Assembly: GCA_018812925.1 (NCBI GenBank)
Contig: JAHJCU010000004.1
Span: forward strand, 165,621-229,620
Source of the DNA: Candidatus Omnitrophota bacterium
Lineage (GTDB): Bacteria > CAIJMQ01
Length of the DNA: 64,000 nt
Direction: 5' to 3'
Under the pieces are notes generated by a model. The model saw only the letters and a program-made list of their open reading frames with translations. It was not told where the DNA came from and ran no database searches. Made by a program: the position numbers and the translations under genes. Shown here piece after piece: positions 8,078-64,000 of this stretch. The stretch's first letter is position 1. The number at the start of each line of letters is the position of its first letter.

Positions 8078-10024
8078 TTAACCTCCTTGCTTCCCTCTTT
8101 CTGTTTCCAATCCAAGAGGGAAAATATCCGGTAAAGAACCTTTTTGCATATCCATTATAATTACATCTCTATTGCTGTCGGGAGAAATTACGATATATTT
8201 CTTGGGAGAAATTAAACTGTTATCAAGAGTTTTTAGATAATAACGATATTTAAAAATGAGAGGGTTTTCACGATATGCTTCAAGTTTTTTCTTGAACTCT
8301 TCTCCTCTTGCCTCCGATTCTAATGTTCTTATAAGTTTATAAGATTCTGCTCTGACTTTAATGATCAAGGCAGCATAGTCTACAAGAGTAAGATCTCTAT
8401 TGGAGTAAGCTTCCGCCCCGAGGATAGATGCCTCCTTTTTTTCCATCGCACCGACAACTTTTTCGAAGCTGGGAGCTACATCCAAGGGAGGATGAATACT
8501 CTCGAAACTTACCGATATTATTTCTACGCCGAGTTCTTTTTTATCTGCCTCGTCTTGAACGTTTTCTTTAAGAATATTTGCTAGAGGAAGTCTGTTGGCA
8601 TTCAAAATGTCAAAAAAATCGACATTCATTACCATTTTGGTAAACTGGTTATATATAATCCCGTCAAGAACTCTTTCCGGCTCGGAATGTTTATATGCAT
8701 AGTCAAATAAATCGGCGGAGTTGATTTTATAATAAACCCATATCGCTCCTGCCAAAAAGTTTATAGGAACTGTTTCGCTTGTCTCACCTGCCCGCCCAAC
8801 AAGTTCGTTGGCAGGCGCGGAAGAATCCGCTTTTTCGAGTAGCAAAGAAGAACTTATCGTCGCAATTTCCTGGCTGGCAATTATCCAGTTAAATTCTTCT
8901 TCATAATGTCTTTCCGTCCACAAAACTCTTTCTCCTTCTTCCCCTCTTACCCCCACACGAACCCGTTTAATTCTGTCAACATCATAAATTTTCGATTTCC
9001 CTATTGGGAATGGGAATTTAAGATGTAGCCCCGGGCCAAATAACTTCGGCTCGCCTTTTTCGCTTATGGGCTTGCCTAAAAATTCTATAAAAGCTTTTTC
9101 ATAGGGTTGCACAATCACAATAGATGTAAGGATATATAGCAAGAATGCCCAGAGCATAAATAATGGGACCATTCTATTTTTTACGAATTGATAAAACCAA
9201 GTTTGAGTGATTCGAAAACCGAATTGGACATCGACTATTTCCGAGAAGGATGGGATAACTTCTTCAGGAGTAGACAAAAAATAATAAATCCTGGAATCAA
9301 AAAATGTGCGACTTTTAGTTCCCGTTGTTCTATAAAATGACACCAAAATGTTGAGAAGATATTCAATCCCGGCGAGCATAAGGAAAAATAAGAGAGCGTA
9401 AAATACAAACCATTCTACTTTTATAAGGTTAAAATATCTAAAAGCAATAGAAATCGCTATAAGGAAAGTAAACAGCGCGTTAACTCCAAGATAGGTTCCC
9501 ATAGCGCTAAGGTCGTTTAATTGTTTTTCTTTAGACATGCCAAGGATATAACGAGAGAATACAAAGATAACAAAAGTTAGCCCTATAAGGGGAAAACAAA
9601 TTGCTAGATTTGCTTCATAGTCAATCGGTCTTCCGCGGAAATAAGATAGTGCTCTAAAAACTACATAAATCAGAGCACTTGAAACAAGAAATCCCAGTAT
9701 AGGCATCGCCCATTTTTCCGTATGGCGCAATCGAACACGGGATATAAGAATAGTGCTTTCATCGTCTTGAAAGATTCTGCCTTCTCTTTTAGTAAGCTCT
9801 TCAACTTCTTCTTTTTCAAGTGATTCTCTGTACCTTTGATGGAAAACAAGCAAAAAGATAGCAAAAATCGGTATTCCTATTAAGACGTGGAAAGTTTCCA
9901 ATAAAATAAGCGGAGATTTTACGCGAGTAAATAAAAAGTAAAATATAAGCGCGAGAACAATTTGGAATAAACAGGCAGCTAAAGCTGTTTGAAATCCTTT
10001 TTTAAATCTATTTTTATCTTCCAT
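8078..10024 (-). CDS. hflK: HflK-like protein with extra multi-span membrane domain
   Basis: A 648-residue protein, far longer than usual HflK (about 420). The N-terminal 320 residues contain about six to eight hydrophobic segments, including two near 18-65 and others at 115-250, which HflK normally lacks. A further span (about 285-310) leads into the Band 7 domain ('QPYEKAFIEFLGKPISEKGEPKLFGPGLHLKFPFP'). The C-terminal part has the usual charged helix. An in-frame GC-rich palindrome at 8787-8820 encodes about 'SSAPANELVGRAGE' inside the Band 7 domain. It begins the SPFH trio and is 73 bases upstream-coupled to the permease at 10098. The extra membrane module is the odd point. Confidence 0.8.
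   Translation of the reverse strand: MEDKNRFKKGFQTALAACLFQIVLALIFYFLFTRVKSPLILLETFHVLIGIPIFAIFLLVFHQRYRESLEKEEVEELTKREGRIFQDDESTILISRVRLRHTEKWAMPILGFLVSSALIYVVFRALSYFRGRPIDYEANLAICFPLIGLTFVIFVFSRYILGMSKEKQLNDLSAMGTYLGVNALFTFLIAISIAFRYFNLIKVEWFVFYALLFFLMLAGIEYLLNILVSFYRTTGTKSRTFFDSRIYYFLSTPEEVIPSFSEIVDVQFGFRITQTWFYQFVKNRMVPLFMLWAFLLYILTSIVIVQPYEKAFIEFLGKPISEKGEPKLFGPGLHLKFPFPIGKSKIYDVDRIKRVRVGVRGEEGERVLWTERHYEEEFNWIIASQEIATISSSLLLEKADSSAPANELVGRAGETSETVPINFLAGAIWVYYKINSADLFDYAYKHSEPERVLDGIIYNQFTKMVMNVDFFDILNANRLPLANILKENVQDEADKKELGVEIISVSFESIHPPLDVAPSFEKVVGAMEKKEASILGAEAYSNRDLTLVDYAALIIKVRAESYKLIRTLESEARGEEFKKKLEAYRENPLIFKYRYYLKTLDNSLISPKKYIVISPDSNRDVIIMDMQKGSLPDIFPLGLETERGKQGG
8787..8820. repeat. 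In-frame GC-rich palindromic element (hflK copy)
   Basis: This 34-base segment begins CCTGCCCGCC and ends TTGGCAGGCGCGG, with CCAAC and GTTGG pairing internally. It is much richer in G and C than its surroundings and shares its ends with the elements in addA, pfk, coaBC and valS. It is a multiple-of-three insertion in the hflK reading frame, giving an Ala/Gly/Pro-rich loop. Whether the homologues lack it needs an alignment. Confidence 0.6.
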
Positions 10025-10097
10025 TGATTAACCTTAATCCGTCAGAAATTTATTTTTTATTGCGATTTTTTGCTGTATTATATACTTCTTGAAACTT

Positions 10098-11060: not shown

Positions 11061-11228
11061 ATTTTAAAAATGAAAAAAAGTAAGTTAAACTTGTGTATTA
11101 ATCTAAAAGAGAGCCAACTGCATTATAAAAAAACAAACTCATATAATTATTAGACAAATTTTTTATTGAATTCTTTGGGGCCGTTGGAAATATTTTTTTA
11201 AATAATCAAATCAATCGGAAAGCTGTTA

Positions 11229-14200
11229 TTATACTTGTTCTATTCTTTTGCCCTTTGGATTGTCCAACCAGATAAGATAACATTTAATTTTTTTGTCGGG
11301 ATAGATTTTTGAAACACCGAGTTTATAATCCCGCATCTGTTTAAGATATTGCTTATTTCTGCTTGAATTGTTGTATGCAGGCTTGTCCGCCGAGTTTTTG
11401 ATAGCGGGCTTTTCGCCTGTTTTATAATCTATGACTTCTATCAAATCGTCTCTTATAAGTAGTCGGTCTGTTCTTTTCAAAATCCCGACTTTGGTTTTTT
11501 TAAAATAAATAGGTGTTTCAATTTTAACCTTTACTTTATCGTCTAAATTAAAGATGAACTCTAAATCTTTATCCGTTAAAATATCTTTTAATAAGGGCTC
11601 CAATTTTTCGGCAATTTCTTTTTGTTCTTCCTGACTGCGCGAATACATTTTCTTTGTATTGTCTATCGCGAGATGAATAGTTTCTTCAAGATTTCTTTCG
11701 TTTACTTTCTCTATCTTTGAAAGAGCATAATGACAGATTTCCCCCCATTTTAAAATATTTCTTTGTTCGTCCGATATAATTGCTTTTTCCTTTATGGGAA
11801 TGATAATTTTTTTTTGCTTTGGATAAAAAGCAAATTTCTCGATTTTTACGAAAGATTTTCTTTTCTTTTTCGTAGATTTTTCACAATCTTGTATGTGTCC
11901 AACCTTATAAATATTGTTTTCCATACTTATTTTTGCGGACTTGGTTATAAAATCAAACCATGTTTTCGATAAGCGATTGTTGTCGTAGCCTATTATCCAC
12001 AATCCTTCTTTGGCTCGGGTCATGGCCACATAAAGATTGTTTAATTCATCGTCATAGACACGTTTTTTCTCGTCCTGAAAGATCTCTTTTTGGAATAATT
12101 TAAGCAGAATATCTTTTCTGTAGTAGATATTATTTAATGTAAATTCAGCGCTTGTTTTGCCGTATTCAAATACGAACTGGTCGTTTTCTATTCCTTCCAT
12201 ATTCCATACGGTTTCTGGAAGCAATACAACGGGAAATTCCAATCCTTTGGCTTTATGGCAGGTAAGAATTTGCACCCCGTTAATTTCGCTTCCTGAAAAT
12301 TCTAATGTTTGTCTATACTGTTGCAGATATTCAATGAACGATGACAGAGAATTTCTTTTCTCGTTTTCGAATTTATAGGCAAGTTCCAATAATGCAGAAA
12401 AAGCGCCGCTATGTTTATAATGTCCCATGACATTCAACAGGGAATATATAAAGGAAATTAATTCATAGGGGCTGACAAAGTCGCAAATTTCCAATATTTT
12501 TTGCAGTTTCTTAGTTGCTTGCCAATCGGGATATTTGTTTTTCAAAGTTTCCAAAAGTCCATAGCCTTTTTTTGTTCTCAAGGTTTCTATTCTTTTTTCT
12601 TCAATACAAAATAGCGGTGAAAGCAATACCAAAGAAAGATAAAAATCCTCGCAAGGATTAGTTAGCCATCTTAGAAGATTTATAACGTCGCAAATTCCTT
12701 CCTGATAAATAAGAGACGATTTGGATTCGCTTTTCGTGGGTATTCCGGCTTCTTCCAAAATTTTAGAAAGTTTAATGCCTGTTTGGTTTCTGCGTACTAA
12801 TAAAGCAATATCGTTATAATCAAACCCTTTCTTCTTCAAGGTTTTGATTATCTTTATTACTTTTGATCCAGAGGCTTTTGCGCCTTCTTTTTGCCCATAT
12901 TCGCCAATGTTTTCCACAACAACCCAGCCACCTTGTTCTTGCTCTGAACTCTTGCCCGCTTCACAGCAATCTCGGTTAGGGATTTGCATGGATTTCATAG
13001 GCTGATGTCCAGGAACAAAAGAAAACACACTGTTAATGAAACTTACTATTTCTTCTTTACTTCGATAGTTTTCGCTAAGACATTCAGATTGTATTTTGCC
13101 GGGAAATTTATTTTTTATATGGTCAAATAGTCGGCTTTCTCCGCCTCTAAAGCGATAAATAGATTGATTGGGATCGCCCACATAAAAAAAACTGTGATTT
13201 TGTCCGGCTATGATTTCTTCCACAATCGGTTCCAATATTTCCCATTGAATTATTGAGGTGTCTTGAAACTCGTCTATCAAAAGATGCTCTATCTGGCTTG
13301 AAGATTTAAAGTATAGATACTCTTTTGTTTGACTGTTCGACAAAGCTTTTAACGCATAATTTTCAAGATCGCTGAAAGTAACTACATTTACATCTTTTTT
13401 CGCATCTTGGAACCTATTGTGGATGGCAAAAAAAAGTTTAAGATTATCAAAGAGAAGTTTGCGATTATTCAAAAGTGCAAATTCTTTCGCCCGACAGTAT
13501 ATTGATAAGGCTATACTTTTTAATTCTGGACCTATTCGAAGGTTTTCTTTTAATTTTTTAAAGTAATTTTTATTAAACAGGTCCATTATTTCCTCTATCA
13601 AATCTTCCTTTGCCCTGCATTTGAAGAGACGCTCTATCGTTTCTATTTTTTTTTCTAAATTTTTATTGTTGCCACAGTCGCTGTTTTTTAAAAGCTTGAT
13701 GATTTTGAAACAATCTTGTTGTAAACAGACAATATCAATAGAGGGTTTTTCTTCTTTGAAATTTTCAAGCCATGAACCCCTGCCCGACAAAATTTGGCAG
13801 GCGGGAGAGCAAGCTCGGTTCATGGTAAGAATTTCTCTTATTTCAAGCATGCGGGGAAGCAGTGATAAAAACATATTTTTTATGGTGTTTTTTGTATCGC
13901 GATGTTTCTTGCCTAAGACTTCGTTTATCAACGTCTTGTAGTCCGATTTATCTATGGCATTGTTTAAGAATTCGTCTATAACTTTGTCGATTAAGATATT
14001 CTCTTCAGCTGTTTCTATTATTCTAAAATCCGGCAAAACATCTGCCTGAAAAGGGATTGTTTTTAATATGGAATTCAAAAACGAATGGATGGTGGAAACG
14101 TTGAAGTCAGAAAAATTCGAAAGAAGTTGATGTTTTAGACGTCGAGCTTTTTTCGTTATATCTTTAAAGCGGAGTTCGAATGTTTCCGCGATTTCTCTTT

Positions 14201-14504
14201 CTTCCTCATCTGTCAAATTCCCGCTTGCTTGATTCTGCAAGAAGCAGGCAGGTTGCCGGACAGGTTCAACAAATTTTTCTCGAGTGCATAATATGTCTAA
14301 GTAACGGACTATGCGCTCCTGCATCTCTCGAGATGCCTTGTTTGTAAATGTCAGTGCGTATATAGATGCAATATTTTCATATTTTAGATACAGGTCCAAA
14401 AAACGCAAAGACAGAGTGCGGGTTTTTCCGGTTCCTGCAGACGCTAAAAGAGCTAAATTTGTGTTTGCGTCAAATAGAGTTTTTTGCATGTGGATGGGAA
14501 ACAA
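11229..14504 (-). CDS. addA: AddA/RecB-type helicase-exonuclease subunit
   Basis: A 1091-residue UvrD/RecB superfamily protein for double-strand break processing. Walker A ASAGTGKT lies at residues 21-28, motif II is LLIDEFQDTS, followed by the UvrD signature 'YVGDPNQSIYRFRGG', and later 'TCHKAKGLEFPVVLLPE' and 'LYVAMTRAKEGLWI'. The C terminus carries a PD-(D/E)XK nuclease core with 'IEVIDYKTGEKP', so the nuclease looks intact. No addB, recC or recD gene is adjacent, so the partner must be elsewhere. Two GC-rich palindromes interrupt the coding frame without breaking it, at 13770-13825 and 14220-14252. AddA versus RecB cannot be settled from sequence alone. Confidence 0.88.
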   Translation of the reverse strand: MFPIHMQKTLFDANTNLALLASAGTGKTRTLSLRFLDLYLKYENIASIYALTFTNKASREMQERIVRYLDILCTREKFVEPVRQPACFLQNQASGNLTDEEEREIAETFELRFKDITKKARRLKHQLLSNFSDFNVSTIHSFLNSILKTIPFQADVLPDFRIIETAEENILIDKVIDEFLNNAIDKSDYKTLINEVLGKKHRDTKNTIKNMFLSLLPRMLEIREILTMNRACSPACQILSGRGSWLENFKEEKPSIDIVCLQQDCFKIIKLLKNSDCGNNKNLEKKIETIERLFKCRAKEDLIEEIMDLFNKNYFKKLKENLRIGPELKSIALSIYCRAKEFALLNNRKLLFDNLKLFFAIHNRFQDAKKDVNVVTFSDLENYALKALSNSQTKEYLYFKSSSQIEHLLIDEFQDTSIIQWEILEPIVEEIIAGQNHSFFYVGDPNQSIYRFRGGESRLFDHIKNKFPGKIQSECLSENYRSKEEIVSFINSVFSFVPGHQPMKSMQIPNRDCCEAGKSSEQEQGGWVVVENIGEYGQKEGAKASGSKVIKIIKTLKKKGFDYNDIALLVRRNQTGIKLSKILEEAGIPTKSESKSSLIYQEGICDVINLLRWLTNPCEDFYLSLVLLSPLFCIEEKRIETLRTKKGYGLLETLKNKYPDWQATKKLQKILEICDFVSPYELISFIYSLLNVMGHYKHSGAFSALLELAYKFENEKRNSLSSFIEYLQQYRQTLEFSGSEINGVQILTCHKAKGLEFPVVLLPETVWNMEGIENDQFVFEYGKTSAEFTLNNIYYRKDILLKLFQKEIFQDEKKRVYDDELNNLYVAMTRAKEGLWIIGYDNNRLSKTWFDFITKSAKISMENNIYKVGHIQDCEKSTKKKRKSFVKIEKFAFYPKQKKIIIPIKEKAIISDEQRNILKWGEICHYALSKIEKVNERNLEETIHLAIDNTKKMYSRSQEEQKEIAEKLEPLLKDILTDKDLEFIFNLDDKVKVKIETPIYFKKTKVGILKRTDRLLIRDDLIEVIDYKTGEKPAIKNSADKPAYNNSSRNKQYLKQMRDYKLGVSKIYPDKKIKCYLIWLDNPKGKRIEQV
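13770..13825. repeat. In-frame GC-rich palindromic element with outer stem (addA copy 1)
   Basis: The core at 13779-13805 reads CCTGCC...TTTGGCAGGCGGG. It is enclosed by a perfect nine-base inverted repeat CCATGAACC (13770-13778) and GGTTCATGG (13817-13825). It is translated in addA as part of 'NRACSPACQILSGRGSW'. The core strongly resembles the two free copies between genes near 23950 and 24036. Confidence 0.65.
14220..14252. repeat. In-frame GC-rich palindromic element (addA copy 2)
   Basis: This 33-base segment differs from the valS element (reverse strand) at three positions by eye and has the same length. It begins CCCGCTTGCTTG and ends AAGCAGGCAGG. In addA it is read as 'PACFLQNQASG', compared with 'PACLLLQEAGR' in valS, so the two copies are read in the same frame and orientation. 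Confidence 0.75.
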
Positions 14505-14596
14505 AATTCAGAAATCAGATTACAATGGTCAGATATCAGTTATAAGTTTTTCGCAGTTCTCTGTATTCTGTCATCTGTTATCTGTCTTCTGTTTAT
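14500..14596. repeat. Degenerate mirrored repeat, CAGAAT/CTGTTATCTGTCTTCTG type
   Basis: Spacer between the phosphohexomutase and addA. It holds short-period units such as TTCAGAAATCAGATT and GTCAGATATCAG followed by the opposite-strand units CTGTATTCTGTCATCTG and TTATCTGTCTTCTG, giving a long imperfect hairpin. The unit closely matches that between the two tRNAs at 62511-62590. Confidence 0.6.
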
Positions 14597-15961: not shown

Positions 15962-15990
15962 GGATTTTTATACTCCTTCTATTAATTTTA

Positions 15991-17981: not shown

Positions 17982-17999
17982 TTTGTCCTCACTTTGTCC

Positions 18000-18079: not shown

Positions 18080-18080
18080 G

Positions 18081-18260: not shown

Positions 18261-18291
18261 TTTAAAACTCCTTTTTAAGTTAAAATCTTAA

Positions 18292-23949: not shown

Positions 23950-24059
23950 CTGCCATAATATTGGCAGGCGGAGATTATCAAATACAGCTTACAAAAATGA
24001 AGCAATTTTAAAATCACTGTAATCTTTTTAAAAATCCCTGCCAAAATAGATAGGCGGGG
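23950..24059. repeat. Two free copies of the CCTGCC...GGCAGGCGGG element
   Basis: Between the zinc-ribbon gene and the L,D-transpeptidase. Copy 1 (23950-23973) reads CTGCCATAATATTGGCAGG followed by CGGAG. Copy 2 (24036-24059) reads CCCTGCCAAAATAGATAGG followed by CGGGG. Both share the core of the addA copy 1 element. They are not in a gene, showing that the element is not simply coding sequence. Confidence 0.65.
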
Positions 24060-27471: not shown

Positions 27472-28542
27472 TTATCCAAAGAAAACCTTAGCTTCTTCCA
27501 AAAGGTCATTATTAACGACTCTTATTTCACCAACCGCTTCTTCAAGAGGAACAGACACAAGTTCTCCTTTTCTAAGGGCCGCCATTTTGCCGAATTCTTC
27601 TTTTTTAACCATATCTATGGCTTTAAGTCCTAATCTGGTGGCAAAATATCTGTCAAATGCCGAAGGAGAACCTCCTCTTTGCAGATGTCCTAAAATAACA
27701 GAACGAGTTTCAATACCCGTTCTGTTTTCTATTTCTTTTTCCAAAGCTTTTGCTATTCCGCCCAATTTTACATGTCCAAAAGAATCAGTTCCTTCAGATT
27801 GAGTGAAGAATTTTCCCGCCTGCTTGCTTTCGCAAGAAGCGGGCAGGTCTCCACCCTTTGGAAGCGCGCCTTCGGCAACCGCAATAATACTGTAAAGTTT
27901 GCCGTTTTCTTTTCTTTTATTTATTACTTTACAAACTTCATCTATGTTAAAAGGCTCTTCAGGAATAAGGATTACATGGGCTCCGCCCGCTATCCCGCCT
28001 TCAAGAGCAATCCAACCGGCATGTCGTCCCATTACTTCTACGACCAAAACTCTATGATGAGACTTTGCAGTTGTATGAAGAGAATCTATTGCTTCAGATA
28101 CGCGATTGATTGCTGTATCAAAGCCAAAACAAATATCCGTAGCCGAAAGGTCGTTATCTATTGTTTTTGGGACACCTACTACCTTAACGCCTTTTTTACT
28201 CAATTTATTTGCGACTCCGAGCGTATCGTCTCCGCCTATAGCTACTAAAGCATGAAGACCGAGTTGATTCATGTTCTCTATCGCTTTTTGCTCTCCGCCT
28301 TCTTCTTTATACGGATTTGTTCTAGAAGTTCCAAGAATTGTTCCTCCTTCGCGATGAATATCTTCCACTTTATCTATACTTATTTCTTCGACGTTTTTGT
28401 TAAGCAGTCCGCGCCATCCGTCTTTTATTCCTATTATTTCGTACCCCAATTTTTCACCTTTTACTACCACAGCACGTATTACCGCGTTTAACCCAGGAGC
28501 GTCTCCGCCACCGGTCAGCACGCCTATTTTCTTCTTTTCCAT
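27472..28542 (-). CDS. 6-phosphofructokinase, pyrophosphate-type residues
   Basis: A 356-residue PfkA-family enzyme that phosphorylates fructose 6-phosphate in glycolysis. 'GGGDAPGLNA' near the start, 'PKTIDND' (125-131) and 'GHLQRGGSPSAFDR' are conserved. Two donor-site positions point to pyrophosphate rather than ATP: 'IGGDDT' (102-107) has Asp where ATP enzymes have Gly (position 104 in E. coli), and 'PKTIDND' has Lys where ATP enzymes have Gly (124). Residues about 233-244 ('LPASCESKQAG') are an insertion encoded by a GC-rich palindrome (27815-27847). The start overlaps coaBC by 19 bases. The donor could also be mixed. Confidence 0.9.
   Translation of the reverse strand: MEKKKIGVLTGGGDAPGLNAVIRAVVVKGEKLGYEIIGIKDGWRGLLNKNVEEISIDKVEDIHREGGTILGTSRTNPYKEEGGEQKAIENMNQLGLHALVAIGGDDTLGVANKLSKKGVKVVGVPKTIDNDLSATDICFGFDTAINRVSEAIDSLHTTAKSHHRVLVVEVMGRHAGWIALEGGIAGGAHVILIPEEPFNIDEVCKVINKRKENGKLYSIIAVAEGALPKGGDLPASCESKQAGKFFTQSEGTDSFGHVKLGGIAKALEKEIENRTGIETRSVILGHLQRGGSPSAFDRYFATRLGLKAIDMVKKEEFGKMAALRKGELVSVPLEEAVGEIRVVNNDLLEEAKVFFG
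27815..27847. repeat. In-frame GC-rich palindromic element (pfk copy)
   Basis: A 33-base element, CCCGCCTGCTTG at one end and AGCGGGCAGG at the other. Its reverse complement differs from the valS element (30844-30876) only in the central loop (GAA against AGA). In the phosphofructokinase it encodes about 'LPASCESKQAG' in a surface-loop position between 'ALPKGG' and the conserved 'KLGGIAKAL'. Confidence 0.8.
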
Positions 28543-29807
28543 TTGTTCCTCCCGATGTTTTGTATTTTATCAAGAATTTTATCCGCCAATTCTATTTTGG
28601 AAAGTAGCGGCATTTTTTCTATTTTACCGTTTTTATCAATAAAAACAGCTTTATTGGTATCACTACAAAAACCCGAGTTTTTCATAATGATGTCATTTGC
28701 TACAATCAAGTCAAGATTCTTTGTTTTCAATTTTTCCTTAGCTACATCTATCTGATTTTCTGTTTCTATGGAAAATCCGACCGTTATTTTGTTTTTCTTT
28801 ATTTTACCAACTTCCAATAATATATCGGAATTCGGGACAAGTTTAATATCCCACGACCCTTCTGCTCTTTTTCTTTTTTGCTTCGTAAAAGTTTTCGGCT
28901 TAAAATCACCTATCGCAGAAGCCATTATCAATACATCTGTAGAGGCTAAATTTTCAATTACTTTATCTCTCATTTGCCTTGCAGTTACAACATTTATAAT
29001 TTCAATTCCACCTGGTTGAGAAAGCAAAGTTGGGGCTGAAATTAATTTAACATCTGCTCCTCTTATTTTTGCCGCTTGAGCCAAAGCATAACCCATTTTG
29101 CCTGATGAAGCATTCCCAATAAAACGAATAGGGTCAAGAAATTCCCGAGTGCCTCCTGCAGTTATTAGAATTTTCACGCTTCTAAGATCTTCCCCGCCTG
29201 CTTGTCCCGATGTAACATCAGGGCGGGCAGGTTTTGCTGATAGGGCATGCTTAATATTTTTTATAATACTCTCTATTGAAGCAAACCTTCCTTCTCCTAT
29301 TTTACCGCTTGCTAAAACGCCTTTATCAACAGGAACTATATAATAGCCCTTATCTTTCAATTTACCTAAATTTTCTCTAAAAATTACATTTTTATACATA
29401 CCCTCATCCATTGCGGGAGCAAAGATTATAGGACCTTGAAAAGAAATAAGAAGCGTAGAAAGTAAATCGTCGGCTATACCGCACGCTGTTTTCGATATTA
29501 TGTTGGCGGTGGCAGGAGCTACAAACATCGCATCAGCCCACTGCGTAAGTTTGATATGAACAAGTTCCTCATGGTTTGAGGCCTGAATCTGGGTATTTTT
29601 GTCCAGTTTATTAAACATCTTCAAATAAACAGGATTTCCAGAAAGCGTTTGGAAAGTCAGAGGATTAATAAATTTAGTAGCATTATCTGTCATCACAACT
29701 TTTACCTGCGCGCCGTCTTCCTGTAATTTTCTTAGCAATTGGCACGATTTATAACAGGCAATGCTACCTGTTACACCTAATATAAATTTTTTACCCTCAA
29801 ATATCAT
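28524..29807 (-). CDS. coaBC: Bifunctional phosphopantothenoylcysteine decarboxylase/phosphopantothenate-cysteine ligase
   Basis: A 427-residue coenzyme A biosynthesis enzyme. The N-terminal CoaC flavoprotein half (1-180) has 'ILGVTGSIACYKSCQLLRKL', 'APATANIISKTACGIADDLL' and 'APAMDEGMYKN'. The C-terminal CoaB half begins at about 205 with 'KILITAGGTREFLDPIRFIGN'. Between them is a palindrome-encoded linker (29193-29231) read as about 'KPARPDVTSGQAGGED'. It shares an operon with valS, rpoZ and phosphofructokinase. With coaX at 45293 the window holds two steps of CoA synthesis. Confidence 0.95.
   Translation of the reverse strand: MIFEGKKFILGVTGSIACYKSCQLLRKLQEDGAQVKVVMTDNATKFINPLTFQTLSGNPVYLKMFNKLDKNTQIQASNHEELVHIKLTQWADAMFVAPATANIISKTACGIADDLLSTLLISFQGPIIFAPAMDEGMYKNVIFRENLGKLKDKGYYIVPVDKGVLASGKIGEGRFASIESIIKNIKHALSAKPARPDVTSGQAGGEDLRSVKILITAGGTREFLDPIRFIGNASSGKMGYALAQAAKIRGADVKLISAPTLLSQPGGIEIINVVTARQMRDKVIENLASTDVLIMASAIGDFKPKTFTKQKRKRAEGSWDIKLVPNSDILLEVGKIKKNKITVGFSIETENQIDVAKEKLKTKNLDLIVANDIIMKNSGFCSDTNKAVFIDKNGKIEKMPLLSKIELADKILDKIQNIGRNKWKRRK
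29193..29231. repeat. In-frame GC-rich palindromic element (coaBC linker copy)
   Basis: The 39-base element has the same ends as the pfk copy (CCCGCCTGCTTG and GCGGGCAGG) but a different interior, TCCCGATGTAACATCAGGG. It falls exactly in the linker between the CoaC and CoaB domains, where insertion should be harmless. Confidence 0.75.
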
Positions 29808-30132: not shown

Positions 30133-32862
30133 TTATTTTCCCCCAATAGTTTTTAGTATCTGGTATAACTTTTCTCTCTTTTTTAAGAATTCTTCTTTTT
30201 CTGCTTTACATTTCTCTATTGCGCTCGGCTGCGCCTTTGACATAAAATCTCGGTTCGCTAATTTCTTCTCTATCCTTATCATTCCCTCGTCCATTTTTGA
30301 CAATTCTTTTTTTATCCTTGTATTCTCCCTTTCCAAATCTATGTCCTTTAATAAAATATAAACGCAAGTTCCCGACGAAGTAACTTGAGAAGAGAACTTC
30401 TCTTTAGCAGATATTTCTTTTTTTATCTGGATATCTTCAGCGTTTATAACCGATATTATGCTGTCTTTTTCTTTTATGAAAATTCCTTCTTCCTCTTCAG
30501 AGGATGGAATAACAACAAACTTCAACTTTTCGTGAAACGAGATATTCCGCTCAGCTCTAATGTTTCTGCTTGCTTGAATAACTTCATATTTCCAGGTCGC
30601 CTCCTCAACAACCTTGTCTTCCGTTTTATCGATTTTAGAAATTGGCCACTGCGCAATTGCAACGCTTTCAGAAAAATTGCCACTTTTATACTGCGAAAGA
30701 TGACTCCAGATTTCTTCTGTTATAAAAGGCATAAAAGGGTGCAGTAATCTTACTATTTTATCCAGAACATAGAACAATGTCTGCCTGCTGATTTGCGCCG
30801 TTTCGGATAAAACAGGATTCGGGTCCAAAGGACCATTTTCTTTCCTGCCCGCTTCTTGCAGAAGCAAGCAGGCGGGCTTGAATTTATACTTGATTAATTC
30901 TATATACCAGTCACAAAACTCGTGCCAGAAAAATTTAAAAAGCAACTCTGCCGATTCACTGAATTTAAAGTTTTTCAATAGTTCTGTAACTTTTTTATTG
31001 ACTTCTTCTGCCCTTCTTAAAATAAATTTCTCGTCCAACCCTAGGGAAAGTTCATATATGTCTTCTACAGGTTTAAATCCATCCCCCAGGTTTCCAATAG
31101 CGAATCGGGAAGCATTCCATATCTTGTTGCTGAAATTTCTCATGCCTTCAAACCTGTCCAGAGAAAAAATTATATCCTGTCCGGCTCCGGTATTAAGCTG
31201 CACAAGCGCCATTCTTAACGCATCTGTTCCGAAATCTTCTATTAATTCCAGAGGGTCGACAACATTGCCTTTGGACTTTGACATTTTTCTGCCTTTTTTA
31301 TCCCTGATTATGGGATGAATATAAACAGTGCTAAAAGGAACATCACCCTTAAATTTAAGTCCCATTAAAATCATTCTTGATACCCAAGAATATATAATGT
31401 CATATGCTGTGACAAGAGTAGAAGTCGGATAAAAATGTTTCAAGTCAACAGTATCCTGCGGCCAACCAAGAGTTGACATAGGCCATAGGCTTGAAGAAAA
31501 CCAGGTGTCTAATACATCTGTTTCTTTGGTTATGTTTTTACTGTCGCATTTTTTGCAAGATTTACCATCCACAACCTCTTTATTAAGCATAATTTCGTTA
31601 CAATCTTCGCAATAGGATACAGGAATGGTATGTCCCCACCATATTTGCCTTGAAATACACCAATCTTTTACATTATCCATCCAATCAAGATATATTTTAG
31701 TCCATCTTTCGGGAACAAATTTTATTTTGCCGCTTTTTACCGCTTTAACAGCAGGGCCTTTAAGTTTTTGAACATCAACAAACCATTGGGTAGATAGATA
31801 CGGCTCTATCATTGTCCCGCAACGGTCACAATACCCTACTGAATGTAAATGAGGAGTAATTTTTACAAGATATCCTTCTTCCCTTAAATCGTTGACTACT
31901 TCTTCTCTGCATTTAAATCGCTCAAGTCCTTCATATTTTTTAGGAACTTGTTTCATTTTGCCTTCTTTATCCATAATTACAAGATTAGCTAAGCCGTGCG
32001 TTTTGCCCATCTCGAAATCTGCAGGATCGTGGGCAGGAGTTACTTTAACGGCACCTGTCCCGAATGAAATTGAAACCCTTTCATCTGATATTACAGGAAT
32101 TTCCCTTTGCGTCAAAGGCAAAATAAGTGTCTTATTTATAAACCGTTTATACCTTTTGTCTTTAGGATTTACCGCAACCGCCACATCACCAAACATTGTC
32201 TCCGGCCTTGTAGTCGCCACAGTGAGCTGCCCCTTACCATCTTTTAAGGGATAATTTATATGGAACAATTTACCTTCAGTCTCTCGATATTCCACTTCCA
32301 CATTAGAAAGAGCGGTTCTACAGCGCGGGCACCAGTTAACAATATAATTACCTCTATATATCAATCTGTCTTTAAATAACTGCGCAAAAGCTTCTTCTAC
32401 CGCTTTAGAGTGTTCTTTGTCCATCGTAAATGAAAACCTGGACCAATCACAAGAACATCCCAACTTTTCAAGCTGTTTGATTATTCTCTTTTCCTGTTGT
32501 TCTTTCCAATCCCAAATTTTACTTATAAGCTTATCTTTGCCAAGTTCGTGTTTGTTTATATTTTGCTTTGCTAATTCTCTTTCTATGACATTTTCCGTAG
32601 CAATACCAGCATGGTCACAACCCGGTATCCAAAGCGCGTCAAATCCCTGCATTCTCTTAAAACGTATTATTATGTCCTGAAGCGTTCCGCCTAATGCGTG
32701 TCCCATATGCAAGGAACCCGTTACATTGGGTGGAGGAATAACAATACAATAGGGTTTCTTGGGAGAAGAAGTATGAACTTCAAAAAGTTTTCTTTCTTCC
32801 CAGAAGGTAAACCACTTATTTTCTACTTCTTTGGGATTGTACCGTGGGGATATTTCTTGCAT
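30133..32862 (-). CDS. valS: Valyl-tRNA synthetase
   Basis: A 909-residue class I tRNA synthetase. HMGH at 52-55 is the HIGH motif; 'GRKMSKSKGNVVDPLELIEDFG' carries KMSKS near residue 520. The editing (CP1) domain with 'TTRPETMFGD' and zinc-like cysteines ('CEDCNEIM', 'CKKCDSK') is present. A C-terminal coiled coil occupies the last 70 residues. An in-frame palindrome at 30844-30876 adds about 'PACLLLQEAGR' near residues 662-673 in the anticodon-binding region, right after 'WYIELIKYKFK'. It is the first gene of the valS-rpoZ-coaBC-pfk operon. Confidence 0.97.
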   Translation of the reverse strand: MQEISPRYNPKEVENKWFTFWEERKLFEVHTSSPKKPYCIVIPPPNVTGSLHMGHALGGTLQDIIIRFKRMQGFDALWIPGCDHAGIATENVIERELAKQNINKHELGKDKLISKIWDWKEQQEKRIIKQLEKLGCSCDWSRFSFTMDKEHSKAVEEAFAQLFKDRLIYRGNYIVNWCPRCRTALSNVEVEYRETEGKLFHINYPLKDGKGQLTVATTRPETMFGDVAVAVNPKDKRYKRFINKTLILPLTQREIPVISDERVSISFGTGAVKVTPAHDPADFEMGKTHGLANLVIMDKEGKMKQVPKKYEGLERFKCREEVVNDLREEGYLVKITPHLHSVGYCDRCGTMIEPYLSTQWFVDVQKLKGPAVKAVKSGKIKFVPERWTKIYLDWMDNVKDWCISRQIWWGHTIPVSYCEDCNEIMLNKEVVDGKSCKKCDSKNITKETDVLDTWFSSSLWPMSTLGWPQDTVDLKHFYPTSTLVTAYDIIYSWVSRMILMGLKFKGDVPFSTVYIHPIIRDKKGRKMSKSKGNVVDPLELIEDFGTDALRMALVQLNTGAGQDIIFSLDRFEGMRNFSNKIWNASRFAIGNLGDGFKPVEDIYELSLGLDEKFILRRAEEVNKKVTELLKNFKFSESAELLFKFFWHEFCDWYIELIKYKFKPACLLLQEAGRKENGPLDPNPVLSETAQISRQTLFYVLDKIVRLLHPFMPFITEEIWSHLSQYKSGNFSESVAIAQWPISKIDKTEDKVVEEATWKYEVIQASRNIRAERNISFHEKLKFVVIPSSEEEEGIFIKEKDSIISVINAEDIQIKKEISAKEKFSSQVTSSGTCVYILLKDIDLERENTRIKKELSKMDEGMIRIEKKLANRDFMSKAQPSAIEKCKAEKEEFLKKREKLYQILKTIGGK
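30844..30876. repeat. In-frame GC-rich palindromic element (valS copy)
   Basis: A 33-base element beginning CCTGCCCGCTTCTTGC and ending GCAAGCAGGCGGG. The two arms pair with a small bulge. It is almost identical to the pfk copy and very close to addA copy 2. In ValS it adds about eleven residues in a loop of the anticodon-binding domain. Confidence 0.8.
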
Positions 32863-34819: not shown

Positions 34820-34927
34820 TTCTAACATTTCGCTTAAGCGGTAAAGCGTAATTGGCGCGGTTAGTGCCGAGCGCAGCGACAGCACTAACCGTGACATAGC
34901 TTTGTCCGGTTGAAGCATTTGTTAGCT
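34820..34927 (-). repeat. attC site (integron cassette recombination site)
   Basis: On the minus strand it starts AGCTAAC (34927-34921) followed by AAATGCTTCAACCGGACAAA and ends with CGCTTTACCGCTTAAGCG and GTTAGAA (34826-34820). The arms are imperfectly complementary with unpaired bases, and the middle contains a strong GGTTAGTGC/GCACTAACC stem. Length is 108 bases, within the attC range. It lies 15 bases after the C39 gene. Confidence 0.75.
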
Positions 34928-46870: not shown

Positions 46871-46981
46871 TTAACCTTGAATTAAACTCTCAATAGATAG
46901 TTCTTTTAAACTATCCATCATAAAGTCAGCTTCTTGGAGTTTGTCTTTGGTAAAAGTACTTGCAACTCCAACAACAATTGC
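46871..46981 (-). pseudogene. Truncated 3' end of a HAD phosphatase gene
   Basis: Minus-strand codons ending at the TAA 46871-46873 give 'VVGVASTFTKDKLQEADF' and then 'SLKELSI', closely matching 'VVGVANTFTKDKLQQADF' and 'NLKELSI' of the intact HAD gene at 48799. No 5' part exists. DNA identity is about three quarters by eye over roughly 110 bases, so it is older or more diverged than the zincin fragment. Confidence 0.8.
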
Positions 46982-48798: not shown

Positions 48799-49455
48799 TT
48801 AAAGCTGATTTTTAAAATCCCTTATAGACAGTTCTTTCAGATTTTCCACCACAAAATCGGCTTGCTGGAGTTTGTCTTTGGTAAAAGTGTTTGCAACTCC
48901 AACAACAATAAATCCTCCCTTTTTACCCGCTTGGATACCGGCGGGAGAATCTTCTATTACGAGAGCTTCTTGAGGTAAAACATCGAGTTTTTTTGCGGTC
49001 AATAAGAATATTTCAGGGTCGGGCTTTACATTCCTACATTCTTCGGCGGTAGTAATTGCGTCAAAATCCCCTATATCTATACCTGCCCCTTTTAAAGTTA
49101 TCCCTAAAATCGACCTATGAGAAGATGTTGCGATTGCGGTTTTTAATCCTAATCTTTTCGCTTCTTTTATGAGTGCAACAGCTCCCGGGAAAGGTTTTAT
49201 ACCGCCGGCAATGGCAATCTTAGAGAAATTGTCCTCTCTTTTTTTCAATGCTTTTTCCATATCAAAGGTTACTTTGTATTTTTCGGAAACTCCCGTAATG
49301 TATTTTTTTGCTCCCGTGCCCACAAACGGCAGGAAATCTTCTTTTTTTACTTTCGCGCCGTAGAGTTCGTCGAACATATCAACCGTGGCTTGAGCAACGG
49401 CGTCTTCCGTATCGACTATCACCCCGTCCATATCAAAAATAACCGCTTTTATCAT
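48799..49455 (-). CDS. HAD superfamily phosphatase (beta-phosphoglucomutase-like)
   Basis: A 218-residue enzyme. 'MIKAVIFDMDGVIVDTE' carries the nucleophile and acid Asp pair, 'AIATSSHRSILG' the motif II Ser/Thr, and 'VIEDSPAGIQAGKKGG' the motif IV acidic pair. The cap inserted after motif I is alpha-helical, placing it with subfamily I phosphatases and beta-phosphoglucomutase. Phosphosugars are likely substrates. It overlaps the TPR gene by four bases. A truncated copy of its 3' end lies at 46871. Confidence 0.9.
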   Translation of the reverse strand: MIKAVIFDMDGVIVDTEDAVAQATVDMFDELYGAKVKKEDFLPFVGTGAKKYITGVSEKYKVTFDMEKALKKREDNFSKIAIAGGIKPFPGAVALIKEAKRLGLKTAIATSSHRSILGITLKGAGIDIGDFDAITTAEECRNVKPDPEIFLLTAKKLDVLPQEALVIEDSPAGIQAGKKGGFIVVGVANTFTKDKLQQADFVVENLKELSIRDFKNQL

Positions 49456-52372: not shown

Positions 52373-52446
52373 TTTCTAGGGGAATCTTTAATAAACTGTG
52401 ATTATTTTACCATAAACCATAAATTATGAACTATGGACCTAAGTAT

Positions 52447-54404: not shown

Positions 54405-54405
54405 A

Positions 54406-55572: not shown

Positions 55573-55573
55573 A

Positions 55574-56716: not shown

Positions 56717-56730
56717 TTAAGCTCTCCTTT

Positions 56731-57348: not shown

Positions 57349-57359
57349 AATGCTTAAGA

Positions 57360-57437
57360 TTACTTTAACTCTTCTTCATTTAAACCGAAATGATGTCCTA
57401 TTTCATGATAAAGCACGTCTGCAACTCTTTTTTCTAT
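57360..57437 (-). pseudogene. Truncated 3' end of the zincin metallopeptidase gene
   Basis: The 25 codons before the TAA at 57360-57362 read 'KRVADVLYHEIGHHFGLNEEELK', matching the last residues of the intact gene at 59662 with one conservative change. About 78 bases match with roughly five or six mismatches, mostly synonymous. The 5' boundary is abrupt and adjoins a hairpin repeat (57441-57517). Confidence 0.85.
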
Positions 57438-57440
57438 TTA

Positions 57441-57517
57441 GTCCTCCCTGCTACATTTCGTTACCCGATGATTTCTTCGAAATCACCCCTTGGGCACAAG
57501 AGAAATGTAGGGGGGAC
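57441..57517. repeat. Hairpin repeat beside the zincin fragment (copy E)
   Basis: An outer stem CTACATTTC (57451-57459) and GAAATGTAG (57502-57510), extended by GTCC...GGAC type ends, encloses GATTTC-TTC-GAAATC (57470-57484). It resembles the intergenic hairpin repeats in layout, and lies exactly at the break in the zincin fragment. Confidence 0.65.
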
Positions 57518-57613
57518 TATATCTTTGCAATATTAAAAACCTCCGTAATCTTTATGACATTTTAAGAAACTTTTGTGGGGATTGCAATTAAGGGTATAGT
57601 GACAGAGCAGTAA

Positions 57614-59503: not shown

Positions 59504-59661
59504 ATCTCTCCCTTAATATCTTGCTTCCTTTTGTAACATTTTAAGAAATCCTAAGACTGTTTTTGATGTAGTTAATGAGGCTATTCATTTATGTATTTTA
59601 AAACATCATACCAAAAAATTCACGTGTCCATACAGTAAGTATTGAGAAGTTACCTCAAATT

Positions 59662-60009
59662 TTACCTTAACTCTTCTTCATTTAAACCAAAATGATGCCC
59701 AATTTCATGATAAAGCACGTCTGCAACTCTTTTTTTTATTTCGGCGTCACTACCGCACATTTTTTCTATAGTATTTTTATATATCGTTATTTTATCCGGC
59801 AAAGTCGAACTATGCCAAACACTCCGCTTCTTCAACGGTATACCCCTATACAGTCCCAACAAAACCGTTCCGGGTGATGTAAAACCTCGAGGCATATTTT
59901 CTTCCACGACTATTTCCACATTTTGCAATTTATCTCTAAATTGCGCAGGCAACTCTTTCAAAGCTTCTATTATCAATTTTTGAAATTCGTCCTTGGTCTT
60001 TTTGATCAT
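59662..60009 (-). CDS. Metallopeptidase family protein (zincin-like, minimal)
   Basis: A 115-residue protein. 'VLYHEIGHHFGLNEEELR' contains HEIGH, the HExxH zinc motif, at the C terminus, and 'MPRGFTSPGTVLLGLYRGIPL' is a conserved family block. This single-domain family is widespread and of uncertain function. It overlaps the CAP gene by four bases. A duplicated 3' fragment lies at 57360. Confidence 0.88.
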   Translation of the reverse strand: MIKKTKDEFQKLIIEALKELPAQFRDKLQNVEIVVEENMPRGFTSPGTVLLGLYRGIPLKKRSVWHSSTLPDKITIYKNTIEKMCGSDAEIKKRVADVLYHEIGHHFGLNEEELR

Positions 60010-60881: not shown

Positions 60882-60903
60882 ATATTTATCTTTGCCTTTC
60901 CGG

Positions 60904-62322
60904 TCAATCTAAGGTTATCCGTCCTACCCTGCGCGTTTTTTTTGTGATTGCCCCCAAATTGCTCCTTCTATAACCCGCAATCCATAGAATTTTCCTGTCT
61001 TTTGTAACTAAAATAGGAACCTTATCGCGCTCTTTAAGAGTAATTTTTTCATCAATAAAAAAGTCTTTGAGTTTTTTTTCTTTATTCATACCAAACGGGC
61101 AAAAACGATCGCCTTTTTGTCTGGTTCTTATTGTCAACGGAAGTTTTATTTTATCCGCATCAAAGTATATTTGATTGGAGTCTTCAAGTTTTAGCATGAT
61201 TTTTTTATCTTTTTTCTTTATATCTAAAAAGACAGTCTTCCCTATCTCCGAGATAAGACATTTACTCTTTTTTTTAAGGACATAAGAATAATTCTTGTTA
61301 TTGGCGGATTTTTTAGAATTTTTGACCTTGCGTATAAAAAGAGTTGTGTATTCCTTGGCTATTTCAACTCCCGACGACAAACGTAGAACTAAATTTGCTC
61401 GTTTAGAATTAATGACTTTTTCTATTTCTTTCAAGTTTGCGTAATCAAGCTCTTTAAATTCTTTGGCGACTTCTCTTAAAATGTTGTTGTGTAAAACACG
61501 GGGATAAGTCATAAGTTTGTCAATTTCTATTTTTACGGCATCCGGCATGCGGGTAGATATGCGTTTTAATATTTTGCGGGTGTTCTGTTTTATATATTCA
61601 CTGTTTTCTTTTGAAATTTGAGAAATCTTAAGCAACCCCTCTTTTATTTTGGGATTAAACTTTTCAAGATAAGGAATAAGTTCATGTCTTATTTTATTTC
61701 TAAAAAACTTTACATCTAGGTTCGACGAATCGATTCTGGGCTTTATCTTCTTTGATCCTAGATACGCTTCAATGTCTTTTCTCCAAATATCAAGCAAAGG
61801 ACGAATTATTTCAACATTTGAACCAAGGGCTCTTACCTCCGGAATCCCACCCAAACCATCTTCTCCGGTGCCTCTTACTATCCTGAAAAGGACTGTTTCT
61901 ATCTGGTCGTTTTTATTATGCCCCAAAGCAATCTTATTAGCATCTAAATCTTTCGCAATTTTTTCCAATGCACCATATCTGACTCTTCTTGCCGCTTCTT
62001 CCAAAGACTCACCTTTCTTTTTTAGTTTATTTATATCTTTTTCTACTGACTTGCAGGGAATTTTTAAGTCTTTGCATATTTTTTTTACTATTTCTTCATC
62101 CTTTAGAGATTCTTTTCCTCTTAGCATATGATTTATATGCCCTGCGCATATTGAAATATCGTATTCTTTCTTTAGCTCATTAAGTATATATAATAAAGCG
62201 CAAGAATCCGGACCACCTGAAAAAGCGACCAGTACCTTGTCGCCTTTTCTAATCATATTAAACTTCTCAATCGTTTGTCGCAGTTTCCTGACTATTGGAG
62301 AACGGACGTTGTTCAATGTCAT
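60904..62322 (-). CDS. tilS: tRNA(Ile)-lysidine synthase
   Basis: A 472-residue enzyme that converts C34 of the CAU-anticodon tRNA-Ile to lysidine so that it reads AUA. The PP-loop is SGGPDS (35-40) in 'LVAFSGGPDSCALLYIL'; 'ALGHNKNDQIETVLFRIVRG' and 'RPLLDIWRKDIEAYL' follow. The C-terminal domain ends in 'RTRQKGDRFCPFGMNKEKKLKDFFID', its tRNA-binding fold. The tRNA genes for CAT anticodons lie directly upstream (62432-62670). The long form with this domain is complete. Confidence 0.95.
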   Translation of the reverse strand: MTLNNVRSPIVRKLRQTIEKFNMIRKGDKVLVAFSGGPDSCALLYILNELKKEYDISICAGHINHMLRGKESLKDEEIVKKICKDLKIPCKSVEKDINKLKKKGESLEEAARRVRYGALEKIAKDLDANKIALGHNKNDQIETVLFRIVRGTGEDGLGGIPEVRALGSNVEIIRPLLDIWRKDIEAYLGSKKIKPRIDSSNLDVKFFRNKIRHELIPYLEKFNPKIKEGLLKISQISKENSEYIKQNTRKILKRISTRMPDAVKIEIDKLMTYPRVLHNNILREVAKEFKELDYANLKEIEKVINSKRANLVLRLSSGVEIAKEYTTLFIRKVKNSKKSANNKNYSYVLKKKSKCLISEIGKTVFLDIKKKDKKIMLKLEDSNQIYFDADKIKLPLTIRTRQKGDRFCPFGMNKEKKLKDFFIDEKITLKERDKVPILVTKDRKILWIAGYRRSNLGAITKKTRRVGRITLD

Positions 62323-62431
62323 GAATTTAGTATATCACCAATAAGAAGTATTGAACAAATTAGGAAATTGCTGAAATAGGAGATACTACTAGGTTTTTGA
62401 GGTTATCTGAACGAAATCAATAATAATACGG

Positions 62432-62505
62432 TGGCGGTGCAGGGACTCGAACCCCGGACATGCGGATTATGATCCCGCCGCTCTAACCAACTGAGCTACA
62501 CCGCC
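62432..62505 (-). tRNA. tRNA with CAT anticodon (elongator Met likely; Ile2 possible)
   Basis: Acceptor GGCGGTG pairs with CACCGCC; the D arm is GCTC/GAGC; the anticodon arm is GCGGG/TCCGC with the loop ATCATAA, anticodon CAT; the T arm is CGGGG-TTCGAGT-CCCTG. The discriminator is A and the CCA is not fully encoded (ACCG follows). CAT is shared by elongator Met and by the Ile tRNA modified by TilS. The neighbouring tilS gene does not settle it. Confidence 0.9.
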
Positions 62506-62510
62506 TTTTT

Positions 62511-62590
62511 CAGGAGACAGAAAACAGAGGACAGACAACAGAAACAAAAATCTTATCTCTGACTTCTGTTTTCTGATATCTGTCTTCTGT
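62511..62590. repeat. Mirrored repeat between the two tRNA genes, CAGAAAACAGA type
   Basis: CAGAAAACAGA (62518-62528) is followed by TCTGTTTTCTG (62565-62575), perfect 11-base arms, with further AGACAG/CTGTCTTCTG pairs outside. It matches the style of the repeat at 14500-14596. Confidence 0.65.
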
Positions 62591-62593
62591 ATT

Positions 62594-62670
62594 TGGTTGC
62601 GGGGGACGGATTTGAACCGTCGACCTTAGGGTTATGAGCCCTACGAGCTACCTGACTGCTCCACCCCGCG
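62594..62670 (-). tRNA. Initiator tRNA-fMet (CAT)
   Basis: 77 bases including an encoded CCA (CCCCCGCAACCA end). The 5' base C opposite A at the first pair, the GGG/CCC pairs in the anticodon stem, and the start CGCGGGGTGGAGCAG are the hallmarks of bacterial initiator tRNA. The anticodon loop is CTCATAA. Confidence is high. Confidence 0.97.
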
Positions 62671-62765
62671 CGAGCATTGTAGTATAAGCCCTCTTAATTT
62701 GTCAATCTGATATCCCCCTATACGCATTTCATTCGCCTATTCTTCTGTGATAAAATTCCGTCCCT

Positions 62766-64000
62766 ATGAGCAAGGACAAAATCATAATAAGGGGAATTCG
62801 ACAACACAATCTTAAAAACATCAATGTGGATATCCCCCGCAATAAATTAGTCGTGATTACGGGCCTTTCAGGTTCAGGGAAATCGTCGCTTGCATTCGAC
62901 ACCATTTATGCGGAAGGACAAAGACGTTACGTGGAATCGCTTTCGGCATATGCAAGACAGTTTCTGGAGATGATGGAAAAACCCGATGTTGATTATATCG
63001 AGGGACTTTCGCCCGCCATAGCCATAGAGCAAAAATCGGTTTATAGGAATCCCCGCTCTACAGTGGGAACAATAACGGAAATATATGATTACTTGCGATT
63101 ACTCTTTGCTCATATCGGAACTGTTTTCTGTTATAAATGCGGCAAAAAAATACAAAGCCAATCGCCCTCTCAAATAGTAGAAAAGATAATGAAATATCCC
63201 GTTTCCACAAAAATACAAGTCCTTGCGCCGCTTGTCAGAGGTAGAAAAGGAGAATATACCGCGCTTTTGGAAAAAATACAGCAAGAAGGATATGTAAGAG
63301 TTCGCATAGACGGAATTATTCATGATTTGGAAGAAGACATCGGAATAGACAAAAACAAGAAGCATAACATTGAAGTCGTAATCGACAGATTAGTCGTAAA
63401 ATCGGATAACAAGCCCTATATTGCTGATTCCGTTGAAACAGCACTAAAATTGTCTGAAGGTTTAGTGCTTATAGTGGTAAAGAATAAAAAAACTACCCCC
63501 CGACGTCCGTCAGATGTCGGGGCGGGCAGCCCCGACGGACGTCGGGACGGGAATGAGAAGCTCTTTTCGCAAAAGTTTTCTTGCCCGCATTGTGATATAT
63601 CTTACCCCGAACTTGCTCCCCGAATGTTTTCTTTTAATTCTCCCTACGGCGCCTGCCAGCAATGTCACGGGTTGGGAGAAAAGATGGAAGTAGATGAGGA
63701 TTTGATAGTGCCCGATAAGAATAAATCGATTGCCGAAGGAGCTATAGAGCCATGGGCTAACCCTGTAACCACAAAAATGCACAGATGGGAAAATTCTGTC
63801 AGTAGATATTTCTCAACCATACTTAAGTCGTTGTCGTATCATTATAAATTCAATCTAAATATACCGTTTAAGGATTTAGATGAAAATATCAGGAAGATAA
63901 TTTTATATGGTTCCGGTGAAGAATTAGTGCAATTCGATGTTGAAAGAGCAGGGCAACTGCATTCTTATGAAGACGCTTTTGAAGGAGTAGTCGGTAATAT
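62766..64000 (+). CDS. uvrA: Excinuclease ABC subunit A, 5' part
   Basis: About 411 codons, open to the window edge. 'GLSGSGKSS' is Walker A (33-41), '[22 protein letters not shown]' and '[21 protein letters not shown]' are signature blocks, with the zinc site 'CPHCDISY' and 'CQQCHGLG'. UvrA scans DNA for damage in nucleotide excision repair. An in-frame palindrome at 63496-63551 adds about twenty residues rich in R, G, D and P between 'LVVKN' and '[13 protein letters not shown]'. The ATG at 62766 is preceded by a weak Shine-Dalgarno signal; the match to the normal N terminus fixes the start. Confidence 0.96.
63496..63551. repeat. In-frame GC-rich palindromic element (uvrA copy)
   Basis: A perfect 13-base inverted repeat, CCCGACGTCCGTC (63499-63511) and GACGGACGTCGGG (63534-63546), encloses GGGGCGGGCAGCCCC. 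The unit CCCGA-x-GTC is shared in part with the coaBC element. It is in the uvrA frame, just before the zinc-binding region. Confidence 0.8.

What the first reader, a model, noticed from the sequence alone, without database searches (positions are those of the whole stretch)
8787..63551. GC-rich palindromic elements inserted in frame within several conserved genes
Seven segments of 27-56 bases, all much richer in G and C than their surroundings and all palindromic, lie inside hflK-like, addA (two), pfk, coaBC, valS and uvrA. All preserve the reading frame and fall where the family is normally variable (linkers and loops). Six share CCTGCC/GGCAGG-type ends; the uvrA copy is a diverged relative. 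The same element also occurs outside genes (23950-24059). Rickettsia is known to have protein-coding palindromic elements (RPEs); I infer an analogous, apparently different family here.
Basis: partly seen in the sequence, partly recalled or inferred. Interest (0 to 1): 0.85.

Follow-up and report, generated by a model that had tools for sequence, protein, structure and literature searches.

The report
Mobile mini-palindromes inside bacterial genes
A little-known uncultured bacterium carries dozens of tiny (about 21-39 letter) G+C-rich hairpin DNA elements that recently jumped into new places, including the middle of essential genes, where only copies whose length is a multiple of three are kept, so each is expected to add a short extra peptide to the protein.

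Summary
Seven G+C-rich segments (58-78% against 34-39% in the flanks) lie in frame in hflK-like, addA (two), pfk, coaBC, valS and uvrA genes. The pattern CCYGCC-N(8-36)-GGCRGG occurs 93 times in the 1.47 Mb genome against 2 for the reversed pattern. Comparison with a congener shows empty sites for pfk, valS, hflK, addA-1 and uvrA; the clean cases are exact to the base, with no target-site duplication. All 16 differential insertions that fall in a gene of the empty-site genome are multiples of 3. The 24-nt form of one element was seen only in genes (8), the 25-nt form only in spacers (9). These are recently mobile, REP-sized elements whose genic copies are filtered for frame. They behave like Rickettsia palindromic elements but are 3-5 times smaller. 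They lack GTAG/CGTC tags, and the genome has no detectable RAYT transposase or reverse transcriptase, so the mobiliser is unknown. They nest inside one another and sit in heptamer tandem repeats, as I recall for cyanobacterial SDRs. The uvrA copy looks like a second family; a third (CCCCGTTAGA...TCTAACGGGG) also occurs in genes. New variant of a known kind.

The parts
8787..8820 (.). Element in the hflK-like (Band_7) gene; CCTGCC...GGCAGGCGcGG; about 33 nt longer than in relatives
   Evidence: absent from G001, G002 and G003; gap of 33 against G001
13771..13830 (.). Element 1 in the addA-like gene: 60-nt compound insert, outer arms CATGAACC/GGTTCATG around CCTGCCCG...CAGGCGGG
   Evidence: absent from G001 at 39/40 and 40/40 flank identity, and from G002 and G003
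14220..14252 (.). Element 2 in the addA-like gene
   Evidence: G001 carries a different palindrome at the site; G002 and G003 lack it
24037..24058 (.). Spacer copy, 22 nt
   Evidence: present in G001 with arms exchanged T-G for C-A
27815..27847 (.). Element in pfk, 33 nt, encodes part of DLPASCESKQAG
   Evidence: precise empty site in G001, G002 and G003
29193..29231 (.). Element in coaBC, 39 nt, between the two domains
   Evidence: shared by G000, G001, G002 with different cores, absent from G003 and from distant homologues; pLDDT below 50 at residues 195-204
30844..30876 (.). Element in valS, 33 nt, encodes PACLLLQEAGR
   Evidence: empty site in G001 and G003; gaps in solved ValRS 1gax
63498..63551 (.). 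Palindrome in uvrA, 54 nt, second family (CCCCGACGTC...GACGTCGGG)
   Evidence: precise empty site in G001; gaps in solved UvrA
8078..10024 (-). Carrier gene: hflK-like, SPFH/Band_7
   Evidence: PF01145, 4.4e-12
11229..14504 (-). Carrier gene: addA-like UvrD helicase with PD-(D/E)XK nuclease domain
   Evidence: PF00580, PF13361, PF12705
27472..28542 (-). Carrier gene: pfk
   Evidence: PF00365, 1.2e-111
28524..29807 (-). Carrier gene: coaBC
   Evidence: PF02441 and PF04127
30133..32862 (-). Carrier gene: valS
   Evidence: PF00133; 1gax 2.4e-226
62766..63998 (+). Carrier gene: uvrA, runs off the window
   Evidence: solved UvrA 9gxk 1.6e-149

Best explanation
The segments are copies of a lineage-specific, recently mobile, non-autonomous hairpin element. 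Its canonical ends are CCTGCCCG...CAGGCGGG, usual sizes are 21-39 nt, and the core varies. SHOWN: a copy can be present in one species and absent from its congener, in clean cases to the base and without target-site duplication; copies nest in one another; genic copies keep the reading frame, spacer copies need not. INFERRED: an element is moved or copied as a single-stranded hairpin, without a transposase that makes staggered double-strand cuts, by a recombinase acting in trans or by host replication/repair. Insertions in genes survive only if they are a multiple of 3, free of stops and in a tolerant loop or linker, and are then translated as extra peptides (often P-A...A-G). No benefit to the host needs to be assumed.
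For: Over-representation. Empty sites between congeners. 16 of 16 differential insertions in genes of the empty-site genome divisible by 3. 24-nt form only in genes (8), 25-nt form only in spacers (9). Nested copy L026:4103 against G001. Removal of a copy from heptamer arrays restores the register: 0.76 match at shift 0 against at most 0.31 at other shifts, six sites. Patchy presence among relatives. Insert in a disordered interdomain linker of CoaBC.
Against: No mobilising enzyme was found. Several sites hold different elements in different species (addA-2, L026:6013), so part of the variation is replacement or local change, not simple insertion. Direction is not always gain: coaBC-like and other shared sites are old, and precise loss cannot be excluded for some sites. 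Translation of the extra residues is inferred from the frame only.
Confidence: 0.75

Rival explanations
1. They are REP/REPIN elements moved by a RAYT (Y1 HUH tyrosine transposase) that is present in the lineage but missing from, or lost by, this assembly.
For: Size, imperfect palindrome, insertion without target duplication and occurrence in uvrA, recB-type and tRNA synthetase genes fit REPs (PMC3733652). Y1_Tnp genes exist in G001, G002 and G005.
Against: No Y1_Tnp in G000 (93 matches) or G004 (72 matches). The Y1_Tnp loci inspected are not flanked by the element. No GTAG/CGTC tag: 4 of 98, near background.
Confidence: 0.2
2. Host replication or repair creates and spreads them: template switching or hairpin capture at gaps, with no dedicated enzyme.
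For: Short palindromes, nesting, variable cores, replacement at the same site, genome full of tandem heptamers that also suggest slippage.
Against: Shared end sequences and cuts exactly at the element ends suggest specific recognition; template switching would often carry flanking bases.
Confidence: 0.25
3. They are removed before or during protein synthesis (mini-introns or translational bypassing elements), so the proteins are normal.
For: Hairpins of this size in conserved genes resemble bypassing elements of yeast mitochondria (recalled, not read).
Against: If they were skipped, length would not matter, yet 16 of 16 are divisible by 3 and the one-base-shorter form is the one seen in genes.
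Confidence: 0.03
4. They are ancient, functional insertions of these protein families or regulatory hairpins kept by selection.
For: A few sites are shared by congeners (coaBC, L026:7010).
Against: Many genic sites are private to one of two close species (16 differential), carriers are unrelated, and all three reading phases occur.
Confidence: 0.04

Closest known systems
Rickettsia/Wolbachia palindromic elements (RPEs; Ogata et al. 2000, 2002, 2005, known here through PMC3767692 and PMC10969869)
   Same: Palindromic repeats of several families inserted in frame in unrelated conserved genes and also in spacers; the same site can hold different families in different species.
   Different: RPEs are about 100-150 bp; these are 21-39 nt (54-60 when compound). 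Different sequence and host. Presence differs between two close species at many sites here.
GTAG- and CGTC-tagged REPs, including intragenic ones (PMC3733652), and REPINs with RAYTs (PMC3116915)
   Same: 20-40 nt imperfect palindromes; copies inside genes such as uvrA, recBCD and tRNA synthetases; nesting in other palindromes.
   Different: No GTAG or CGTC tag; no Y1 transposase in this genome.
Small dispersed repeats (SDRs) of Nostoc (Elhai et al. 2008; paper not held, contents recalled; cited in PMC4390886 and PMC3116915)
   Same: Very small mobile hairpin repeats, nested copies, some inside heptamer tandem repeats and minitransposons.
   Different: Different sequence and host; here 20 of 45 copies on the sampled contig are in genes; no reverse transcriptase in any of seven genomes.
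MITEs
   Same: Non-autonomous inverted-repeat elements, sometimes fused in frame to genes.
   Different: Much shorter, and no target-site duplication in the clean cases.

Membership tests
Rickettsia palindromic elements (RPE) | Palindromic repeat inserted in frame in unrelated genes | tested here: met
Rickettsia palindromic elements (RPE) | Length about 100-150 bp | tested here: not met
   21-39 nt, 54-60 when compound
Rickettsia palindromic elements (RPE) | Sequence kinship to RPE families | not tested
   no RPE sequence library on hand
GTAG/CGTC REP | 20-40 nt imperfect palindrome in many copies | tested here: met
GTAG/CGTC REP | GTAG or CGTC at one end | tested here: not met
   4 of 98 elements within 8 nt of an end, near background
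RAYT-mobilised REP/REPIN | Y1_Tnp/RAYT gene in the genome, flanked by the repeat | tested here: not met
   none in G000; Y1_Tnp loci inspected in relatives are not flanked by the element; the assembly is 92% complete
MITE | Target-site duplication | tested here: not met
   clean empty sites show none
Cyanobacterial SDR | Very small mobile hairpin repeat with nested copies | tested here: met
Cyanobacterial SDR | Copies embedded in heptamer tandem repeats | tested here: met
   register restored at six sites, but elements are not enriched in heptamer tracts
Cyanobacterial SDR | Sequence kinship to the Nostoc SDR families | not tested
   SDR sequences not on hand

The most novel reading that the evidence does not exclude
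A class of very small mobile DNA elements (about 21-39 nt) that spreads as a hairpin without a RAYT, a reverse transcriptase or target duplication, with genic forms that differ in length from spacer forms so as to keep the frame (24 against 25 nt), and that repeatedly adds peptides to essential proteins of an uncultured bacterial lineage.
Probability: 0.3. Interest if true: 0.85.

Novelty: new variant of a known kind. Interest (0 to 1): 0.62.

Why it matters
In-frame palindromic elements are best known from Rickettsia and Wolbachia, where how they move is unresolved and, in the study read here, sites are mostly shared among spotted fever group species. Here two close species differ at many sites, so insertion points, lengths, target choice and frame filtering can be read directly. 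It also shows how small a mobile unit can be and that essential proteins tolerate repeated peptide insertions.

Tried and rejected
RAYT and reverse transcriptase as mobilisers: not supported. Exact patterns in genome and viral collections gave 0 hits, which excludes only those exact forms, and near relatives may be left out of those scans. My first mod-3 count was biased, because a frameshift ends an ORF; I repeated it with genes called in the empty-site genome. Heptamer repeats are not enriched around elements (6 of 45 spacer copies against 29% of random spacer sites); only the register test is informative. Orientation against local GC skew: 20 of 30 agree (hand count), not significant. Target motif: only a weak preference for A at -3 and -1 and A/T at +2 and +3, partly from shared heptamer contexts. 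The first family B script had a wrong pattern and was redone. A few distant genomes exceed their control (e.g. G016, 21 against 0) and were not followed.

Full report
WHAT WAS CHECKED. The window lies at G000:C11:165621-229620 of a 1.47 Mb genome in 14 contigs, 92% complete. It has two relatives in its genus (G001, G002), one in its family (G003) and three in its class (G004-G006); the other genomes shown share only the domain. Named relatives of the hflK-like protein are MAGs called 'uncultured bacterium' or carrying doubtful names, so I cannot name the host lineage. The seven segments were read and translated; all lie in open frames. Their GC is 0.58-0.78 in flanks of 0.34-0.39. Fold z-scores run from -1.4 (hflK) to -4.3 (uvrA), so hflK and addA-2 are the weaker palindromes.

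MORE THAN CHANCE. In 464 kb the arm pattern gives 43 raw matches against 0, 0, 0, 0 and 1 in Markov controls. CCTGCCCGC occurs 28 times against 2.4 expected and CCCGCCTGC 26 against 2.8. Whole-genome counts against the reversed pattern are 93/2 (G000), 132/3 (G001), 35/9 (G002), 5/3 (G003), 72/4 (G004), 85/2 (G005) and 0/1 (G006) (G000 again). Overlapping matches are counted in these numbers. The element is therefore common in part of the class and nearly missing from G003, which serves as a reference for empty sites.

EMPTY SITES. Aligning DNA of the four genomes gave gaps opposite the hflK, addA-1, pfk and valS elements and, against G001, opposite uvrA (54 nt). Over all fetched stretches, 27 of 67 G000 elements and 21 of 40 G001 elements could be compared. 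Clean examples are 27 nt at L020:8133, 27 nt at L118:5397, 24 nt at L132:7085, 33 nt at L081:11275 and 27 nt at L087:11518. In each the gap begins and ends at the ends of the palindrome and no target bases are repeated. Other sites are less clean: boundaries in hflK, valS and L015:1808 can be slid by a few bases. Other elements are old: coaBC carries one in G000, G001 and G002, with changing cores (39, 39, 27 nt). At addA-2 and L026:6013 the two species hold different palindromes at the same place, so replacement also happens.

FRAME. For each differential insertion I asked whether the site lies in a gene of the genome that lacks the insert, so that the test does not depend on the inserted ORF being open. 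All 16 such insertions are multiples of 3: 33, 60, 33, 33, 27, 27, 21, 27, 27, 24 in G000 and 33, 27, 54, 27, 54, 54 in G001. A few of these, mainly the 54-nt ones, have poorly aligned edges. Independently, the 25-nt form CCCGCCTGCTTGCGAAGCGGGCAGG occurs 9 times in spacers and never in genes, while the form with one T less occurs 8 times in genes and never in spacers. Overall 46 of 55 genic against 15 of 43 spacer elements are divisible by 3, though that count carries an ORF-calling bias. Copies are about nine times rarer per kb in genes (0.040 against 0.367), yet 20 of 45 on the sampled parts of contig C11 are genic. The simplest reading is insertion everywhere, followed by selection against frameshifts.

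WHERE IN PROTEINS. Distant CoaBC homologues lack the residues, apart from one with an unrelated linker insertion. In an AlphaFold2 model of CoaBC residues 195-204 are one of two stretches with pLDDT below 50 and lie between the two domains. The ValRS, UvrA, CoaBC and PFK inserts fall in gaps or unaligned stretches against solved proteins. That they are harmless loops is inferred.

ANATOMY. Of 80 distinct elements, 33 have the ends CCTGCCCG...CAGGCGGG, an imperfect palindrome that reads differently on the two strands. Cores vary and are modestly more self-complementary than shuffles (0.60 against 0.48). Elements nest: a 24-nt copy sits inside a 33-nt copy in G001, and addA-1 is a compound. Some lie inside a longer family with ends CCCCGTTAGA...TCTAACGGGG (3 of 31 pairs). 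Spacers are rich in tandem heptamers (peaks at lags 7, 14 and 21), and removing an element from such an array restores the register (six sites).

MECHANISM. Exact ends with no target duplication argue against ordinary double-strand transposases (established knowledge of DDE transposition). Y1_Tnp is absent from G000 and from G003, G004 and G006; RVT_1 is absent from all seven genomes. These absences are limited by genome completeness. I infer movement as a single-stranded hairpin by an unidentified enzyme acting in trans or by replication/repair. That step is not shown.

COMPARISON. It works like RPEs, but is 3-5 times smaller and not shown to be kin. It has the size and some of the host genes of intragenic REPs (PMC3733652: uvrA, recBCD, tRNA synthetases), but not their tags or a resident RAYT. 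It shares size, nesting and heptamer setting with the Nostoc SDRs as I recall them; that paper is not held.

Noticed in passing
L019:11316-11384, L025:15681-15740, L082:2032-2094 and others: A second repeat family with terminal inverted repeats CCCCGTTAGA...TCTAACGGGG, 26-269 nt long, occurs in spacers and in genes; the genic pairs listed are mostly multiples of 3. Some contain the CCTGCC element.
   Followed up: partly
Spacers of G000, e.g. window 14558-14592 and 62551-62590: Spacers are rich in degenerate tandem heptamers (AATTACC, ACTAGAT, TCTGTNN and others), with autocorrelation peaks at lags 7, 14 and 21 that genes lack.
   Followed up: partly
L152:6000-7300 (G001:C39): A Y1_Tnp gene lies between two copies of another hairpin, CCCACCTCCGAGGTGGGA, unrelated to the element studied.
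   Followed up: no
window 24037-24058 against L057:3548-3569: Between two species at 98-99% identity the arms of one hairpin exchanged T-G for C-A at the same pair of positions, while the core stayed the same.
   Followed up: no
window 57360-57449 and 59662-59751; 46893-46978 and 48824-48909: Two pairs of 86-90 nt direct repeats (85-90% identical) that look like fragments of duplicated gene ends.
   Followed up: no
window 34851-34895: A G+C-rich palindrome CGGTTAGTGC...GCACTAACCG in a spacer, unrelated in sequence to the element.
   Followed up: no
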